Made by a program: the position numbers and the translations under genes. A stretch of 64,000 bases of DNA from Gemmatimonadota bacterium (GTDB taxonomy: Bacteria; Gemmatimonadota; Gemmatimonadetes; Gemmatimonadales; GWC2-71-9), in the NCBI GenBank assembly GCA_016874005.1, contig VGVQ01000022.1, positions 1-64,000 of the forward strand, given 5' to 3'. The notes below the pieces were generated by a model. That model saw only the letters and a list, made by a program, of their open reading frames with translations, was not told the origin of the DNA and searched no databases. This document shows, piece after piece, positions 58,606 to 63,331 of this stretch (positions within the stretch are counted from its first letter, which is position 1; each line of letters opens with the position of its first letter).

Positions 58606-58611
58606 TATCTT
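58606..58611 (+). promoter_or_regulatory. Candidate -10 box (TATCTT) for the tandem small-protein operon
   Basis: CGATATCTTAGAG lies 59 bases before the proposed TTG start at 58670 and 75 bases after the uvrA hairpin. It is the only promoter-like element between uvrA and the small-protein series. No convincing -35 box is visible. Confidence 0.45.
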
Positions 58612-58669
58612 AGAGAGTAGCCTGGGGCCGCGATGCCGGCCCCAGCTCTCGCACCGGAGGGTGCCGCCT

Positions 58670-58966
58670 TTGGGTCCTGACGTCATTGTCCCCGTCTTTG
58701 GAATGATCACTGGCATTCTGGTGATGGGCGCGTTGTCGTGGGGGCTCGTTAACATCTTTCGGGGTCCGGTGGGTCAGGCGCTCGCCAAACGGATTCATGG
58801 CGGCCATGGCGATCCCAATCCAGAACTGGCTACCGAGCTGTTCGACCTCAAGACCCAAGTCGAAGGGCTGCAGCAGCGCTTGGCCGAGACCGAGGAGCGG
58901 CTCGACTTCAGCGAACGTCTCCTCGCCAACCGACCCGAACCCTCTCCACCGGAAACGCCTCGATGA
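58670..58966 (+). CDS. Small membrane/coiled-coil protein, paralogue 1 of 7
   Basis: A 98-residue protein. A TTG at 58670 has GGAGG nine bases before it, and the protein then begins LGPDVIVPVFGMITGILVMG, aligning with the start of paralogue 4 (MDPGDVAPMIVVSML). One membrane segment (about 8-30), then FRGPVGQALAKRIHGG, then a coiled coil with QRLAETEERLDFSERLLAN. This 15-residue motif closes every member of the series. The ATG at 58703 is a possible alternative start. It resembles the C-terminal helix of PspB proteins (LxxRIxxLExIL). Its stop overlaps the next start. Confidence 0.72.
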   Translation: MGPDVIVPVFGMITGILVMGALSWGLVNIFRGPVGQALAKRIHGGHGDPNPELATELFDLKTQVEGLQQRLAETEERLDFSERLLANRPEPSPPETPR

Positions 58967-59253
58967 GCGACGACGTCGTTCAGTTCTTCGGGGTGATGAT
59001 GACCCTGCTGGTCACCGGCGTGCTGGGCTATGCCGGCTTCACCGTGGTTGGCGCGCTCCAACGACGGCTCGGCAGCCGCTCGGACCCGGTTCTCGCCCCT
59101 GATGAAGTCGAGGCCGTTCGGGCCAATATCGAAGAGACGGATCAGCTTCGGCACCGAGTCGCCGAACTCGAGGAGCGGTTGGATTTCGCGGAACGACTCC
59201 TCGCCAAGTCCGAACCGGCCCGGCTCTCCCCGGGCAACGACTGCCCCCCGTAG
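58963..59253 (+). CDS. Small membrane/coiled-coil protein, paralogue 2 of 7
   Basis: A 96-residue protein starting with an ATG that overlaps the previous stop (ATGA). One membrane segment (FFGVMMTLLVTGVLGYAGFT, about 8-30), a basic stretch (ALQRRLG), a charged helix and the shared motif HRVAELEERLDFAERLLAK, then a short tail. It matches paralogues 5 and 6 best in the motif. I know no named family; PspB-like by layout. It is probably inserted in the inner membrane with the coil in the cytosol (positive-inside rule). Confidence 0.78.
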   Translation: MSDDVVQFFGVMMTLLVTGVLGYAGFTVVGALQRRLGSRSDPVLAPDEVEAVRANIEETDQLRHRVAELEERLDFAERLLAKSEPARLSPGNDCPP

Positions 59254-59261
59254 GCTGCCTC

Positions 59262-59624
59262 ATGGTCCAACCCCAGCCGCCGATCCCGCCGCCGCCGGAT
59301 GTCTTCCCGGCTCCCCCGCCGGTGATCTTCCAGGACGGCCCTCCGGAAATCGTTCTCATCGCGGTAGTGTCGTTGGTCGGCATCATCGCCGCCGGGGTCC
59401 TCCTGCTGCCGCTGGTCCGAGCCCTCGCCCGCCGGCTGGAGGGCAAAACGGTCGACAACGCCTACCAAGCCGAGCTCGAACAGCTCCGGGCTCGGGTCGC
59501 CGAACTGGAGCCCCTTCAGCATCGTATCGCCGAACTCGAGGAAAGGGTCGACTTCTCGGAGCGGCTGCTCACCCAAGGCCGAGATGCCGCCCGCGCCCCT
59601 GGAGGCACCGATGGATCCCGGTGA
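59262..59624 (+). CDS. Small membrane/coiled-coil protein, paralogue 3 of 7, with Pro-rich N-terminus
   Basis: A 120-residue protein. It begins with a 26-residue Pro-rich stretch (PPIPPPPDVFPAPPPVIFQD) not found in the other copies, then one membrane segment (IVLIAVVSLVGIIAAGVLLL), ALARRLEG, and a longer coiled coil (LEQLRARVAELEPLQ) ending with the shared motif HRIAELEERVDFSERLLTQ. It is separated from paralogue 2 by eight bases, and its end overlaps the start of paralogue 4 by 14 bases. The proline stretch could bind SH3- or EVH1-like surfaces, but this is speculation. Confidence 0.76.
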   Translation: MVQPQPPIPPPPDVFPAPPPVIFQDGPPEIVLIAVVSLVGIIAAGVLLLPLVRALARRLEGKTVDNAYQAELEQLRARVAELEPLQHRIAELEERVDFSERLLTQGRDAARAPGGTDGSR

Positions 59625-59889
59625 CGTCGCCCCGATGATCGTCGTCTCGATGCTGGCGTTGGTGACCGGGGCCGTGATGATCTTCCGGGGGCCGCTGGGG
59701 AGAGCGATCGCTCGCCGGATCGAGGGCGGCGCGGGGCTGCCGAGTCCCGAGGTCGAGGCCCGGTTGAGCGACCTCGAGCACCGCCTTTCCGATGGTGAGC
59801 AGGAGCGGGCCGAGCTGCTCGAACGCCTGGAATTCGCCGAGCGGGTGCTTCTCCAGGCCAAGGATCCCCAGCGGGAACTTCCGAGGTGA
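59611..59889 (+). CDS. Small membrane/coiled-coil protein, paralogue 4 of 7
   Basis: A 92-residue protein: MDPGDVAPMIVVSMLALVTG with one membrane segment (about 9-28), IFRGPLGRAIARRIEGG, and a coiled coil ending in RAELLERLEFAERVLLQAK, the most divergent form of the shared motif. I take ATG 59611 because it aligns with paralogue 1; an in-frame ATG at 59584 would lie deeper inside the upstream gene. The stop overlaps the GTG of paralogue 5 (GTGA). Confidence 0.75.
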   Translation: MDPGDVAPMIVVSMLALVTGAVMIFRGPLGRAIARRIEGGAGLPSPEVEARLSDLEHRLSDGEQERAELLERLEFAERVLLQAKDPQRELPR

Positions 59890-60272
59890 GCGTGGTCAAG
59901 AAGCACCTCGGGATCGATCTCGTCGACCTCGCGATCCATGTCTTCGTGACCGGGCTCGCCATGGCGTTCGTCAACGAAATCGTCCTCGGCCCGGACGCCG
60001 ACGCCATCGCCTTGACCATTACCGCCGCGTCGGCGCTCCTGTTCGCCTGGCGCCGGCAACGGGGCCTCAAGCGCGCCGCCTCGTCACCGACTGGCCTGAC
60101 GACCGGGCAGATGGAAGCGGCGAGAATCGAAGAACTCGAGCAGCGACTCGCCGATCTCGAAGCCGGTCAGCTTCGGGTGGCGGAGCTGGAGGAGCGGCTC
60201 GACTTTGCCGAACGCCTCTTGGCCCAGGGTACCGGCGAACGGCTCCTCCCCGGCCAGGAGCGGGCTCGGTGA
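59886..60272 (+). CDS. Small membrane/coiled-coil protein, paralogue 5 of 7, two membrane segments
   Basis: A 128-residue protein with a GTG start overlapping the previous stop. It opens VSVVKKHLGIDLVDLAIHVF, has two membrane segments (about 14-33 and 40-56), a basic stretch (WRRQRGLKRAA), a TTGQMEAARIEELEQRLADL helix and the shared motif VAELEERLDFAERLLAQ. Its first 15 residues are copied in the remnant that follows (VSVVRRHLGIDGIDLA), so an eighth copy once stood there. Confidence 0.78.
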   Translation: MSVVKKHLGIDLVDLAIHVFVTGLAMAFVNEIVLGPDADAIALTITAASALLFAWRRQRGLKRAASSPTGLTTGQMEAARIEELEQRLADLEAGQLRVAELEERLDFAERLLAQGTGERLLPGQERAR

Positions 60273-60364
60273 GCGTCGTCCGACGGCATCTTGGTATCGA
60301 TGGCATCGACCTGGCCAGGCCGAGTCGAAACGCCGTGATCGAAACGCGAGGCCGCCATGGGTGA
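60269..60364 (+). pseudogene. 31-codon remnant of an eighth paralogue
   Basis: A GTG in a GTGA overlap with the stop of paralogue 5 starts the reading VSVVRRHLGIDGIDLARPSR, then NAVIETRGRHG and a stop. The first 15 residues match the start of paralogue 5 (VSVVKKHLGIDLVDLA) with four differences, but the membrane part and coil are missing. Its stop overlaps the start of paralogue 6. The best reading is a duplicated copy that lost its middle and end by deletion; translation of a short peptide remains possible. Confidence 0.65.
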
Positions 60365-60629
60365 AGTCGGGTTCTTCGCAATGTTCCTGATGGTTGGGGC
60401 CGTGGGCGTGTCGGTGCTACTGGGTCCCATCGGCAGTGCGGTCGCCCGGCGGCTGGCCGGCGGCAAGCAGGATCCCAAGACCGGCCTCTCGACCGGCGAA
60501 ATGGCCGCCGAGCGGGTTGCCCAGCTGGAGCAGCGGGTTCACGAGCTCGAGGAGCGGCTCGACTTCGCCGAGCGGATGCTCGCCCAGAGCAGGGAGTCGG
60601 CGGTCATCGAGCCGAGGACCCCGTCATGA
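60357..60629 (+). CDS. Small membrane/coiled-coil protein, paralogue 6 of 7
   Basis: A 90-residue protein: MGEVGFFAMFLMVGAVGVSV with one membrane segment (about 5-24), LLGPIGSAVARRLAGGKQ, then LSTGEMAAERVAQLEQRV and the shared motif HELEERLDFAERMLAQ. It overlaps the remnant's end by eight bases and the next start by four (ATGA). The part STGEMAAERVAQLEQR is close to the matching part of paralogue 5. Confidence 0.78.
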   Translation: MGEVGFFAMFLMVGAVGVSVLLGPIGSAVARRLAGGKQDPKTGLSTGEMAAERVAQLEQRVHELEERLDFAERMLAQSRESAVIEPRTPS

Positions 60630-60961
60630 ACCGGCGCGACGGCTCGTTCTCCGCCGCGGCGATTGCGGTCTCCGTCCTCGGGGCGCTTGCCGCCCACGTG
60701 GTGCTTGGCGTGGCCGTTGGGGAGGGGTACGCCATTCCGACCACCATCGTCGGGGCGATCGCGGCTGCCGTGGTGCTCCGTGGACCGGTCGGTCACGCCC
60801 TTGCTCGCCGAATCCAGGGTCCCGCCCCGTCCGAGCTTCCGCCCGATCAACTGCTCGGTGAGCTCGACGAGCTGCGAACCCGCTTGGCGGAACTCGAAGA
60901 ACGGGCCGATTTCTCCGAACGCCTGCTCGCCCAGCAGCGCGAGCGGTCCTCGACTGAGTAG
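60626..60961 (+). CDS. Small membrane/coiled-coil protein, paralogue 7 of 7, two membrane segments
   Basis: A 111-residue protein with an ATG that overlaps the previous stop. Two membrane segments (about 9-30 and 37-52), VLRGPVGHALARRIQGP as in copies 1 and 4, and a coil with ELDELRTRLAELEERADFSERLLAQ in two parts. It ends the series. A 56-base gap with a TATATT element follows, before the YbjN-like gene. Confidence 0.77.
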   Translation: MNRRDGSFSAAAIAVSVLGALAAHVVLGVAVGEGYAIPTTIVGAIAAAVVLRGPVGHALARRIQGPAPSELPPDQLLGELDELRTRLAELEERADFSERLLAQQRERSSTE

Positions 60962-60984
60962 TCGTATCGGATGCTCACGACCCC

Positions 60985-60992
60985 TATATATT
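60985..60992 (+). promoter_or_regulatory. Possible internal promoter before the YbjN-like and pspA genes
   Basis: TATATATT in the 56-base gap after paralogue 7 is the most AT-rich stretch nearby. It lies 25 bases before the ATG at 61018, which has GGAGG five bases upstream. No good -35 is visible. It could give the last two genes separate expression. Confidence 0.35.
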
Positions 60993-61017
60993 CCCCGATC
61001 CTTGCCCGGAGGATGCG

Positions 61018-61413
61018 ATGGTAACCAAGGATGACCTGCAGTCCTTCCTCGATCGGCTCGAGGGCGGGGCCGCCGACGTTCGGGAGGTCGAGCCGGGCCT
61101 CTGGGTGGTCAAGGTGGCCGGTGGCGCGGAGATTGTAGTAACCTATGCCCCGCCGGTGGTCATTCTCCGGTTTCGGGTCATGGAATTGCCTGGATCGGTG
61201 GAAAAGCAGGGCGAGCTGTTCCGGCAGTTGCTCGAGTACAACGCCAGGGAGCTGGTCCACGGGTCATATGGCCTGGAAGGCAACCACGTGGTCCTGACCG
61301 ATACCCTGGAGCTGGAAAACCTGGATTACTCCGAGTTCGAGGCAAGCTTCGACTCGCTGTCGTTGGCGCTGTCCTCGCACCTGGGCGCCCTGGCGCCGTT
61401 CCGAGAAAGGTAA
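61018..61413 (+). CDS. YbjN/CesT-like protein next to pspA
   Basis: A 131-residue alpha/beta protein with the layout of YbjN and type III chaperone-like (CesT) proteins: helix TKDDLQSFLDRLEGGAADVR, strands WVVKVAGGAEIVVTYAPPVV and ILRFRVMELPG, helix EKQGELFRQLLEYNARELVH, strands GSYGLEGNHVVLTDTLELEN and a last helix. It has no leader. Such proteins bind other proteins rather than catalyse. It is four bases from pspA, so the two must act together. A strong GGAGG precedes the start. Confidence 0.75.
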   Translation: MVTKDDLQSFLDRLEGGAADVREVEPGLWVVKVAGGAEIVVTYAPPVVILRFRVMELPGSVEKQGELFRQLLEYNARELVHGSYGLEGNHVVLTDTLELENLDYSEFEASFDSLSLALSSHLGALAPFRER

Positions 61414-61417
61414 AGCG

Positions 61418-62173
61418 ATGGGAATCTTCGAACGCTTCTCGACGATGCTCAAGTCGAATATCAATGATCTCATCTCTCGGGCGGAAAACCCGGAGAAGAT
61501 GCTCAATCAGTTGATTCTCGACATGAAGTCCCAGCTGGCGAAGGCCAAGCAAGAAGCCGCCGCCGCCATCGCCGATGAGAAGAAGCTCCAGGCCGACGCC
61601 GAAGGGTTGAAGAAGCAGGCCGAGGACTGGGAACGCCGCGCCATGCTCGCGGTCCAGGAGGGCCGAGACGACCTCGCGAAACAGGCCCTGGTCCGGTACA
61701 ACGAGGCCCTTCAGGGTGCCCAGCAGCTCCACGAGACCTGGCTCAAGCACAAGGCCGATACCGAGAACCTCAAGGTCTCGCTCCGCCAACTCAACGACAA
61801 GATCGAAGAGGCGAAGCGAAAGAAGAACATCCTCGTCGCCCGTGCCAAACGCGCCGAGGCGCAGCAGCGCATCCAGGAGACCATGTCCGGGATGAGCGAC
61901 AAGAGCGCCTTCGAGTCCTTCGATCGGATGGCCGAGAAGATCGAGGCGGTCGAACGCAAGGCCCTCGCTGCGGCCGAGTTGCAACAAGAATTCCAGTCGG
62001 ATGACCTCGCAGCCCAGTTCAAGCAGCTCGAGTACAAGGGCTCGGCCGATCAGCAGCTGATCGAGCTCAAGGCCAAGATGGGTTTGCTCGGCAAGGGTGC
62101 CGGCGACACCAAACAGCTCGGAAAAGGGGCGGCCGAGTCCGAGGCCGAGGTCCTCGACGACGAGCCCAAGTAG
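61418..62173 (+). CDS. pspA: PspA/IM30 family protein
   Basis: A 251-residue, fully helical ESCRT-III-related protein that binds stressed inner membranes. The start MGIFERFSTMLKSNINDLIS is the usual amphipathic helix; NPEKMLNQLILDMKSQLAKA, DEKKLQADAEGLKKQAEDWE and ARAKRAEAQQRIQETM follow the family. The Pro in ENPEKML is conserved. The C-terminus has an acidic tail (ESEAEVLDDEPK). It follows the YbjN-like gene by four bases. PspF, PspC or LiaFSR partners are not in the window. The seven coiled-coil membrane proteins upstream may take their part. Confidence 0.92.
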   Translation: MGIFERFSTMLKSNINDLISRAENPEKMLNQLILDMKSQLAKAKQEAAAAIADEKKLQADAEGLKKQAEDWERRAMLAVQEGRDDLAKQALVRYNEALQGAQQLHETWLKHKADTENLKVSLRQLNDKIEEAKRKKNILVARAKRAEAQQRIQETMSGMSDKSAFESFDRMAEKIEAVERKALAAAELQQEFQSDDLAAQFKQLEYKGSADQQLIELKAKMGLLGKGAGDTKQLGKGAAESEAEVLDDEPK

Positions 62174-62198: not shown

Positions 62199-62233
62199 TT
62201 GACCGGACGGTAATTTCGGATACAATTTTGTAT
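62199..62233 (+). promoter_or_regulatory. Promoter of the DUF1611 gene with overlapping inverted repeat
   Basis: TTGACC (62199-62204), 16 bases, TACAAT (62221-62226). The -10 is covered by a perfect inverted repeat ATACAA-TT-TTGTAT (62220-62233), which could be an operator for a repressor. The ATG at 62258 is 32 bases downstream of the -10. Confidence 0.6.
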
Positions 62234-62257
62234 ACCGACTTCCGCCCATCGACCCTC

Positions 62258-63331
62258 ATGGCCGACCCTCGCTTCCTCATCATCGCCGACGGCAACTTCC
62301 ACCCCCTCGAATCCAAGACGGCCAATTCCGTCATTCGATATCATCCCTCGAGGGTGGTCGGCGTTCTCGATCGGCAGAAGGCCGGTCAGACCGCTCAGGA
62401 CGTCCTCGGATTCGGCGGCGCCATCCCGATTGTCGGCTCCATCGAAGCGGGGCTGGCGCTTCGCCCGAACGCCATCATGATCGGGATTGCACCGGCCGGC
62501 GGAAGGCTGCCCGACGAGTGGAACGGTTGGCTGGCCAAGGGGCTCGAGGCCGGCTGCGACCTGATCAGCGGGCTCCACACCTTCCTGTCCGATGATCCGT
62601 CCCTCGCGGCCCTAGCCGTCAAGCACGGTCGGACCATCACCGACGCCAGGAAGCCGCCCAACGACCTCCCGATCGCGGCGGGGTTGGCGCGGCTGGTCGA
62701 TCCCTTCGTGGTACTGACGGTCGGAACCGACTGCAATTCCGGCAAGATGACCTCCCAGCTCCAGCTGACCGCCGCCCTCAAGGCCAAAGGACTGCGGACC
62801 AACTTCGTCGCCACCGGTCAGACTGGGATCTTCATCGAGGGCTGGGGCACCGCGGTCGACGCCGTGGTGGCCGATTTCATTGCCGGGGCCGCCGAGGAGC
62901 TGGTCTTGAGGGGTGCCCGCGATGCCGACATCGTGTTGGTCGAAGGGCAGGGAAGCATCAATCACCCGGGCTACAGCGGGGTAACCCTTGGGCTGCTTCA
63001 TGGCGCCTGTCCAGACGCCTTGCTGCTCTGCCACCAGGCGACTCGCGAATTCATCGGCGAGTATCGGGTCGAGCCCTGGCTCAGGATTCCGCCGCTCTCG
63101 AAGTACGTCCAGCTCTATGAGCTGATCGGTTCGGCGGTGCACCCCACTCGCGTCATCGGCATCGCGCTCAACACCTACGATTTGGACGAGACCCAGGCCA
63201 AGGCCGCCTGCCTGGCCGCCGCCGCGGAAACCGGCTTGCCGTGCACCGACCCGGTCCGCTTCGCGCCCGACCCGCTGGTCAACGCGGTCGTTCGGGCTCG
63301 CGACGGCTATCTCGAACGGCGCCGGGGTTGA
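62258..63331 (+). CDS. DUF1611 protein (DgcN-like)
   Basis: A 357-residue protein with two parts. Residues 1-130 form a Rossmann-like N-terminal domain (FLIIADGNFHPLESKTANSV), and 130-357 form a P-loop-like domain with VLTVGTDCNSGKMTSQLQLT, VATGQTGIFIEGWG and VEGQGSINHPGYSGVTLGLL. This is the DUF1611 family. Members called DgcN act with the epimerase-like DgcA in D-glutamate use, with N-acyl transfer proposed for DgcN. No dgcA is seen within the window. I start at ATG 62258; an in-frame TTG at 62228 lies within the operator-like repeat and is unlikely. Confidence 0.85.
   Translation: MADPRFLIIADGNFHPLESKTANSVIRYHPSRVVGVLDRQKAGQTAQDVLGFGGAIPIVGSIEAGLALRPNAIMIGIAPAGGRLPDEWNGWLAKGLEAGCDLISGLHTFLSDDPSLAALAVKHGRTITDARKPPNDLPIAAGLARLVDPFVVLTVGTDCNSGKMTSQLQLTAALKAKGLRTNFVATGQTGIFIEGWGTAVDAVVADFIAGAAEELVLRGARDADIVLVEGQGSINHPGYSGVTLGLLHGACPDALLLCHQATREFIGEYRVEPWLRIPPLSKYVQLYELIGSAVHPTRVIGIALNTYDLDETQAKAACLAAAAETGLPCTDPVRFAPDPLVNAVVRARDGYLERRRG

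What the first reader, a model, noticed from the sequence alone, without database searches (positions are those of the whole stretch)
58606..62173. Seven tandem paralogous membrane/coiled-coil proteins in front of a YbjN-like protein and PspA: a candidate expanded Psp envelope-stress system
Between uvrA and pspA there are seven small genes (90-128 residues), each with one or two membrane segments, usually a GPxGxAxARR-type basic stretch, and an end motif of the form AELEERLDFAERLLAQ. All but one neighbouring pair overlap, so they should be made in fixed ratio. A chaperone-like YbjN/CesT protein and PspA follow on the same strand. The motif and layout recall PspB (one membrane helix plus a short coil that binds PspA/PspC), but PspB is normally one gene. 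Seven diverged copies suggest a hetero-oligomeric membrane platform for PspA, or a set of interchangeable sensors. I know of no described Psp operon with such an array; this has not been searched.
Basis: partly seen in the sequence, partly recalled or inferred. Interest (0 to 1): 0.85.

Follow-up and report, generated by a model that had tools for sequence, protein, structure and literature searches.

The report
Expanded membrane-adaptor array beside PspA
Uncultured Gemmatimonadota carry a row of one to eleven related small membrane proteins, different in the membrane but sharing one end motif, just before the membrane-repair protein PspA and its chaperone-like partner; this looks like an undescribed, expandable sensor or anchor set for a bacterial stress system.

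Summary
The array is real. Seven paralogous membrane/coil genes (58670-60961) stand before a CesT/Tir-fold (YbjN-like) gene and PspA; an apparent relic of an eighth (c5-type) copy lies at 60269-60364. Four of six neighbours overlap, not "all but one". The copies form an uncatalogued family with an almost invariant cytosolic end (E-R-x-D-F-x-E-R-x-L). In the window's GTDB family and a sister family, 44 of 45 genomes with an intact, assessable pspA carry copies just upstream (1-8 where counted; 11 in one other record). The third family of the order has none there. Three other families of the class carry one related gene in this slot, so the array is a lineage-specific expansion of an older Psp-locus gene. 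Paralogues share the end motif almost as well as orthologues do (64 v 72%) but not the membrane part (30 v 48%). Copy number is 7/7/4/1 within the window's genus and no copy is universal, which fits interchangeable anchors or sensors on a common partner better than a fixed seven-part platform. PspB and PspC are absent from the genome. PspB-like architecture is clear; homology is suggestive, membership not met. Partner and function are inferred. No earlier description was found in the papers searched.

The parts
58670..58966 (+). c1, copy 1 (98 aa, TTG start): TM, GPVGQALAKR, coil, end motif ETEERLDFSERLL
   Evidence: orthologues in L040, L041, L048
58963..59253 (+). c2, copy 2 (96 aa); overlaps c1 by 4 bases
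59262..59624 (+). c3, copy 3 (120 aa), proline-rich N-terminus, TM, coil
   Evidence: orthologues in about eight other genomes of the family
59611..59889 (+). c4, copy 4 (92 aa); overlaps c3 by 14 bases
   Evidence: orthologue in L040
59886..60272 (+). c5, copy 5 (128 aa, GTG start), extended N-part with a second hydrophobic stretch, no GPxG
   Evidence: orthologues in L040 and L041
60269..60364 (+). apparent relic of an eighth (c5-type) copy, truncated, filling the c5-c6 gap
   Evidence: 12/17 residues and 35/51 bases to the c5 start, best match of this stretch in the window
60357..60629 (+). c6, copy 6 (90 aa)
   Evidence: AlphaFold2 model: helices 2-22, 24-33, 46-84, mean pLDDT 88
60626..60961 (+). 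c7, copy 7 (111 aa), extended hydrophobic N-part; overlaps c6 by 4 bases
   Evidence: orthologues in seven genomes of the family, the only copy in the G004 array
61018..61413 (+). CesT/Tir-fold (YbjN-like) chaperone-type protein, 131 aa
   Evidence: PF22550 3.7e-26; model pLDDT 91, Foldseek hits 2plg, SicP, BacA 8q8o, YbjN 6vu7
61418..62173 (+). PspA (ESCRT-III family), 251 aa
   Evidence: PF04012 7.9e-47, TIGR02977 1e-41

Best explanation
The seven genes are a lineage-specific expansion of one older Psp-locus gene for a small membrane protein with a cytosolic coil. Each copy is a membrane anchor or sensor with its N-terminus outside. Its membrane part differs from copy to copy; its cytosolic end helix (E-R-x-D-F-x-E-R-x-L) is nearly invariant and docks on one shared partner, most likely PspA itself or the CesT-like protein that accompanies PspA. 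The set would let the PspA/CesT module be held at, or released from, the membrane in answer to several membrane conditions. It works like PspB, but in a genome without canonical PspB or PspC. Shown: the family, its end motif, its expansion, its link to CesT-PspA and purifying selection. Predicted from sequence: topology and helices. Inferred: the docking partner, sensing and release. Copies arise and decay by duplication and loss, so the set is modular and not a fixed complex.
For: Array directly upstream of (CesT-)PspA in 44 of 45 assessable genomes of two families. One related gene in the same slot in three more families of the class: f4, f8, f10. Five genomes of family f6 have neither PspA nor any family member. 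End motif near-invariant in 98 copies from 25 loci (F 98/98, second R 98/98, second E 97/98, first R 97/98), beyond what a coil needs. Motif identity 64% between paralogues and 72% between orthologues, against 30% and 48% in the N-part, shuffled baseline 22%. Copy number 1-8 in the genomes read, 11 in L141; 7/7/4/1 within the genus. Decaying eighth copy and a coil-only c6 orthologue in G003 fit duplication and loss. pN/pS 0.35-0.58. Positive-inside charge puts the coil in the cytoplasm in 77 of 98. No PspC and no PspB in the genome.
Against: No interaction was tested. The motif also occurs in dispersed copies away from pspA, beside kinases, a PadR regulator or ABC exporters, so the shared partner could be something else. 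G190 has pspA without an adjacent array (13 dispersed members), and G066 has dispersed weak members but no PspA match. Family f2 keeps PspA without the array and f5/f7 keep CesT-PspA without a detectable member in the slot. Sensing is not shown by any sequence feature.
Confidence: 0.55

Rival explanations
1. Fixed hetero-oligomeric membrane platform: seven subunits made in set ratio form one scaffold on which PspA assembles.
For: Short or overlapping gene junctions (33 of 74 neighbouring pairs overlap, 62 of 74 within 25 bases) suggest coupled translation; the coils could hetero-dimerise.
Against: Copy number 1-11 across genomes and 7/7/4/1 within the genus; G002 lacks c7 while the G004 array keeps only c7, so no subunit is indispensable.
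Confidence: 0.12
2. The copies are true PspB: a diverged, multiplied pspB that still works in the PspB manner.
For: PspB (TIGR02976) is the NCBIfam family most often matched by the 36 members scanned (14 of 36, best 8.7e-7). A dispersed relative (L175, G022) passes Pfam's PspB threshold (27.2 v 25.6 bits) and also matches the family profile at 42.7 bits. E. coli PspB scores 17.9 bits against the profile, above 1000 shuffles of itself (best 17.0).
Against: No array copy meets a PspB cut-off; hhalign 21%; E. coli YhcB scores 15.1 bits too; the single-copy genes of f4, f8 and f10 tested show no PspB match; no PspC partner in the genome.
Confidence: 0.15
3. A generic adaptor family of Gemmatimonadota whose partner is not PspA; the pspA-side array is only one of many placements.
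For: Many dispersed members: 4 beyond the array in this genome (11 matches in all), 13 in G190; neighbours include a histidine kinase and NtrC-type regulator, a Ser/Thr kinase, a PP2C phosphatase, and PadR with an ABC exporter.
Against: The only large tandem arrays seen are at pspA, the locus order is kept in nearly all genomes of two families, and single-copy relatives sit in the same slot in three other families.
Confidence: 0.15
4. A neutral, unstable tandem repeat of a dispensable gene.
For: Copy-number change and a decayed copy.
Against: Purifying selection (pN/pS 0.35-0.58), near-invariant motif, orthologous classes kept across genera.
Confidence: 0.03

Closest known systems
PspB (PF06667 / TIGR02976) of the proteobacterial psp operon
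   Same: Small protein, one N-terminal membrane helix with positive-inside charge, cytosolic coil whose end shares the pattern R-[IV]-x-x-L-E-x-x-L-D; encoded beside pspA. Duplicated PspB in one operon is on record (PMC11237479).
   Different: Below PspB cut-offs; longer end motif D-F-x-E-R-x-L absent from PspB; up to 11 copies; upstream instead of downstream of pspA; no PspC in the genome.
CesT/Tir chaperone-PspA dyad (yjfI-yjfJ, bac operon of Pseudomonas)
   Same: CesT-fold gene directly before pspA, as described by PMC11237479; the model matches BacA (8q8o) and YbjN (6vu7).
   Different: No band-7/flotillin or AAA partner seen directly around it; the membrane-coil array has not been described for this dyad in the papers searched.
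PspC / PspM / Lia membrane partners of other Psp systems
   Same: Membrane proteins that sense stress and talk to PspA.
   Different: No domain match; only one sub-threshold PspM hit (0.016, c7); PspC absent from the genome.

Membership tests
PspB | Score above the curated PspB cut-off (Pfam 25.6, TIGR02976 51.7 bits) | tested here: not met
   No window copy or scanned array copy reaches it; only a dispersed relative, L175, passes Pfam's
PspB | One N-terminal TM helix, cytosolic coil, under about 130 aa | tested here: met
   Hydropathy, charge bias, AlphaFold2 model of c6; c5 and c7 have a longer hydrophobic N-part, perhaps two helices
PspB | Encoded with pspA | tested here: met
   Adjacent in 44 of 45 assessable genomes
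PspB | Acts with PspC | tested here: not met
   PF04024 has no match in the window's genome
PspB | Self-association, PspC/ArcB binding, control of psp induction | not testable with these tools
   needs experiments
CesT/Tir-PspA dyad | CesT/Tir-fold protein encoded directly before pspA | tested here: met
   PF22550 3.7e-26; Foldseek to SicP, BacA and YbjN with E under 1e-3; 4-base gap to pspA
PspA/IM30 | PF04012 above the gathering score | tested here: met
   160 bits against 33.9
Known anti-phage defence families (PADLOC) | Profile match of the array copies | tested here: not met
   No match for c1-c7

The most novel reading that the evidence does not exclude
A phylum-specific, plug-in repertoire for a bacterial ESCRT-III protein: one common cytosolic docking motif recruits PspA (with its CesT chaperone) to many different membrane segments. 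The tandem array supplies a set of membrane-state sensors, and dispersed members carrying the same motif bring the same effector to kinases, exporters and two-component systems.
Probability: 0.2. Interest if true: 0.85.

Novelty: new variant of a known kind. Interest (0 to 1): 0.62.

Why it matters
Many bacteria with PspA lack PspB and PspC, so how PspA is told where and when to act there is open. Here a so far unnamed protein family sits in that position, has a clear candidate docking motif, and has been multiplied up to elevenfold in one lineage. That makes the question testable with short peptides and PspA, and would show a modular way of tuning a bacterial ESCRT-III system.

Tried and rejected
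Pfam, NCBIfam, PHROGs and PADLOC scans for a described family: none above a curated cut-off for c1-c7. Solved-structure sequence search: only coil and channel-coil matches. Foldseek of the c6 model: nothing. Profile-profile against E. coli PspB: 21%, with FtsB and YhcB at 1-3% as controls. Sigma54 and sigma70 promoter scans: nothing before c1. PspB in viral contigs: none. E. coli as a genome handle for an unbiased ranking: not possible; replaced by a small set of annotated E. coli proteins plus shuffles. The broad alignment A2 could not be used for the collection scan; A1 was used instead. Phage or defence origin was considered and dropped (chromosomal frame uvrA ... dgcN conserved, no profile match).
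Full report
WHAT IS THERE. Between uvrA (ends 58500) and pspA (61418-62173) the window holds seven genes in one direction: c1 58670-58966 (TTG start with GGAGG ahead of it), c2 58963-59253, c3 59262-59624, c4 59611-59889, c5 59886-60272, c6 60357-60629, c7 60626-60961; then a 131-residue CesT/YbjN-like gene (61018-61413) and PspA. All 21 pairs of copies match each other in BLASTP, from about 5e-6 to 2e-20. The 84-base gap before c6 holds an apparent relic of an eighth, c5-type copy: from GTG 60269 it reads MSVVRRHLGIDGIDLAR against MSVVKKHLGIDLVDLAI, and the best match of this stretch elsewhere in the window is the c5 start (35 of 51 bases, next best 30).

WHICH ORGANISM. That scan used one end-motif pattern, so it shows that the array type was found only there, not that the wider family is confined to the phylum.

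DISTRIBUTION. PspA was found in most relatives. Reading the DNA around it, 19 genomes of the window's GTDB family (f1, window included) and 6 of f3 have at least one copy directly upstream of CesT-PspA or, in a subgroup (G011, G015, G016, G020, G023, G024), of PspA alone, because no CesT gene was found there. Comparing coordinates adds 19 of 20 more f1 genomes; the exception is G190, whose 13 members all lie elsewhere. That makes 44 of 45 (G233, with a partial pspA, not counted). In the nine f2 loci read, the slot is empty of members: uvrA, then in several cases a serine dehydratase gene, then CesT-PspA or PspA. In f4, f8 and f10 of the same class one related membrane-coil gene, ending in a form of E-E-Q-x-F-x-x-R-L-L, stands right before CesT-PspA, in f4 G097 behind uvrA; in f5 and f7 none was detected. 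Five f6 genomes have neither PspA nor a family member. The simplest reading is an old single gene at the Psp locus, expanded in f1/f3 and lost elsewhere.

COPY NUMBER AND TURNOVER. Arrays have 1 to 8 members in the genomes read (interrupted sequence in L071 makes its count approximate, and a few arrays are cut by contig ends) and 11 in L141. Within the window's genus the counts are 7 (window), 7 (G003), 4 (G002) and 1 (G004), in the same frame uvrA ... CesT-pspA-dgcN. G002 lacks c7, the G004 array keeps only c7, and G003's c6 orthologue is a 56-residue coil without its membrane helix (by the start that was chosen). A tree of 99 copies shows orthologous classes kept across genera (c1, c3, c4, c5, c7 and a class beginning MEGILAIIFIFGGG), with many forks unresolved because only 100 columns are usable. 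pN/pS between window and genus relatives is 0.35-0.58 for the copies, 0.30 for the CesT-like gene and 0.17 for PspA: constrained, but faster than PspA.

ANATOMY OF THE FAMILY. Over 98 copies from 25 loci the end motif reads R/Q-x-R-V/L-A-E-L-E-E-R-L-D-F-A/T-E-R-L-L, with F 98/98, second R 98/98, first R 97/98 and second E 97/98. Paralogues of one genome share 64% of this motif, orthologues 72%; the part before it is 30% alike between paralogues and 48% between orthologues, with 22% for shuffled sequence (orthologue groups were taken from the tree). So one end is held in common and the membrane part diversifies. The charge following the membrane segment is more positive than that before it in 77 of 98, which puts the coil in the cytoplasm. 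The AlphaFold2 model of c6 (mean pLDDT 88) is a membrane helix 2-22, a short helix 24-33 and a long helix 46-84 that carries the motif at its end.

IS IT PspB? Layout, yes; membership, no. No array copy reaches a PspB cut-off. Yet PspB (TIGR02976) is the NCBIfam model that most members touch (14 of 36, best 8.7e-7), and a dispersed relative in G022 (L175) passes Pfam's PspB threshold (27.2 v 25.6 bits) while also matching the family profile. Against that, hhalign with E. coli PspB gives 21%, E. coli YhcB scores nearly as well as PspB on the family profile (15.1 v 17.9 bits), and the single-copy genes of f4, f8 and f10 that were tested show no PspB match. Distant homology is plausible, convergence is not excluded. 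Canonical PspB was absent from 61 class genomes and nearly absent from 298 phylum genomes; PspC is absent from the window's genome. In E. coli PspB was not found to contact PspA directly, only with PspC (PMC3068692), so here a direct or CesT-mediated contact would be needed.

THE CesT-LIKE GENE. PF22550 at 3.7e-26; the model (mean pLDDT 91) matches 2plg, SicP, CesT, E. coli YbjN (6vu7) and BacA (8q8o), the Psp-linked protein of the Pseudomonas bac operon. The CesT/Tir-PspA dyad is already described (PMC11237479, PMC10948618), so this part is known.

MECHANISM. Shown: one family, one shared end motif, diversified membrane parts, expansion and loss at the CesT-PspA locus, selection. Inferred: the motif docks on PspA or on the CesT-like protein; different membrane parts answer to different membrane conditions. 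Variable copy number speaks against a fixed seven-part platform. Dispersed members with the same or a similar motif beside a histidine kinase and NtrC-type regulator, a Ser/Thr kinase, PP2C, and PadR with an ABC exporter leave open that the shared partner is a more general one.

NOVELTY. The two phyletic surveys of Psp systems that I searched do not mention Gemmatimonadota or a tandem array of this kind; PMC11237479 notes duplicated PspB. Only open-licence papers could be searched, and their supplements could not. I rate it a new variant of a known kind: a Psp locus with an undescribed, expandable membrane-adaptor family.

LIMITS. Many of the genomes are fragmented MAGs. Start codons are chosen by rule, not measured. 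HMM E-values computed in scripts are for small sets of frames. The orthologue comparison is not independent of the tree. No interaction, expression or phenotype data exist here.

Noticed in passing
L118, L119, L120 (GTDB family f2): Long-linker members of the family (two to three in tandem in L118 and L120) lie beside two-component genes; in L118 they stand between a sensor histidine kinase and a sigma54-type response regulator, and in L119 a GAF histidine kinase is next door.
   Followed up: partly
L073 (G000:C1:411065): In the window's own genome a dispersed member stands between a PadR regulator and an ABC transporter ATPase and permease-like gene.
   Followed up: partly
L072, L123, L129: A separate subfamily (ending E-E-x-x-F-L-x-K/R-L-L) recurs across the class next to a bshC-like gene (naming from the sequence only).
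   Followed up: no
L039, L043, L044, L047, L070, just upstream of the array: A conserved protein of about 75 residues (YE.IV..LGYAGGHE..VRITT..), without a Pfam match where tested, precedes the array in several genomes; not seen at this place in the window.
   Followed up: no
window 62228-63331: A DUF1611 (DgcN-like) gene follows pspA and is kept there in many relatives.
   Followed up: partly
L116 and L163: Members of the family beside a Ser/Thr protein kinase (L116) and near a PP2C phosphatase (L163).
   Followed up: partly
G190 (GTDB family f1): pspA without an adjacent array but 13 family members scattered over the genome: the array may have been dispersed here.
   Followed up: partly
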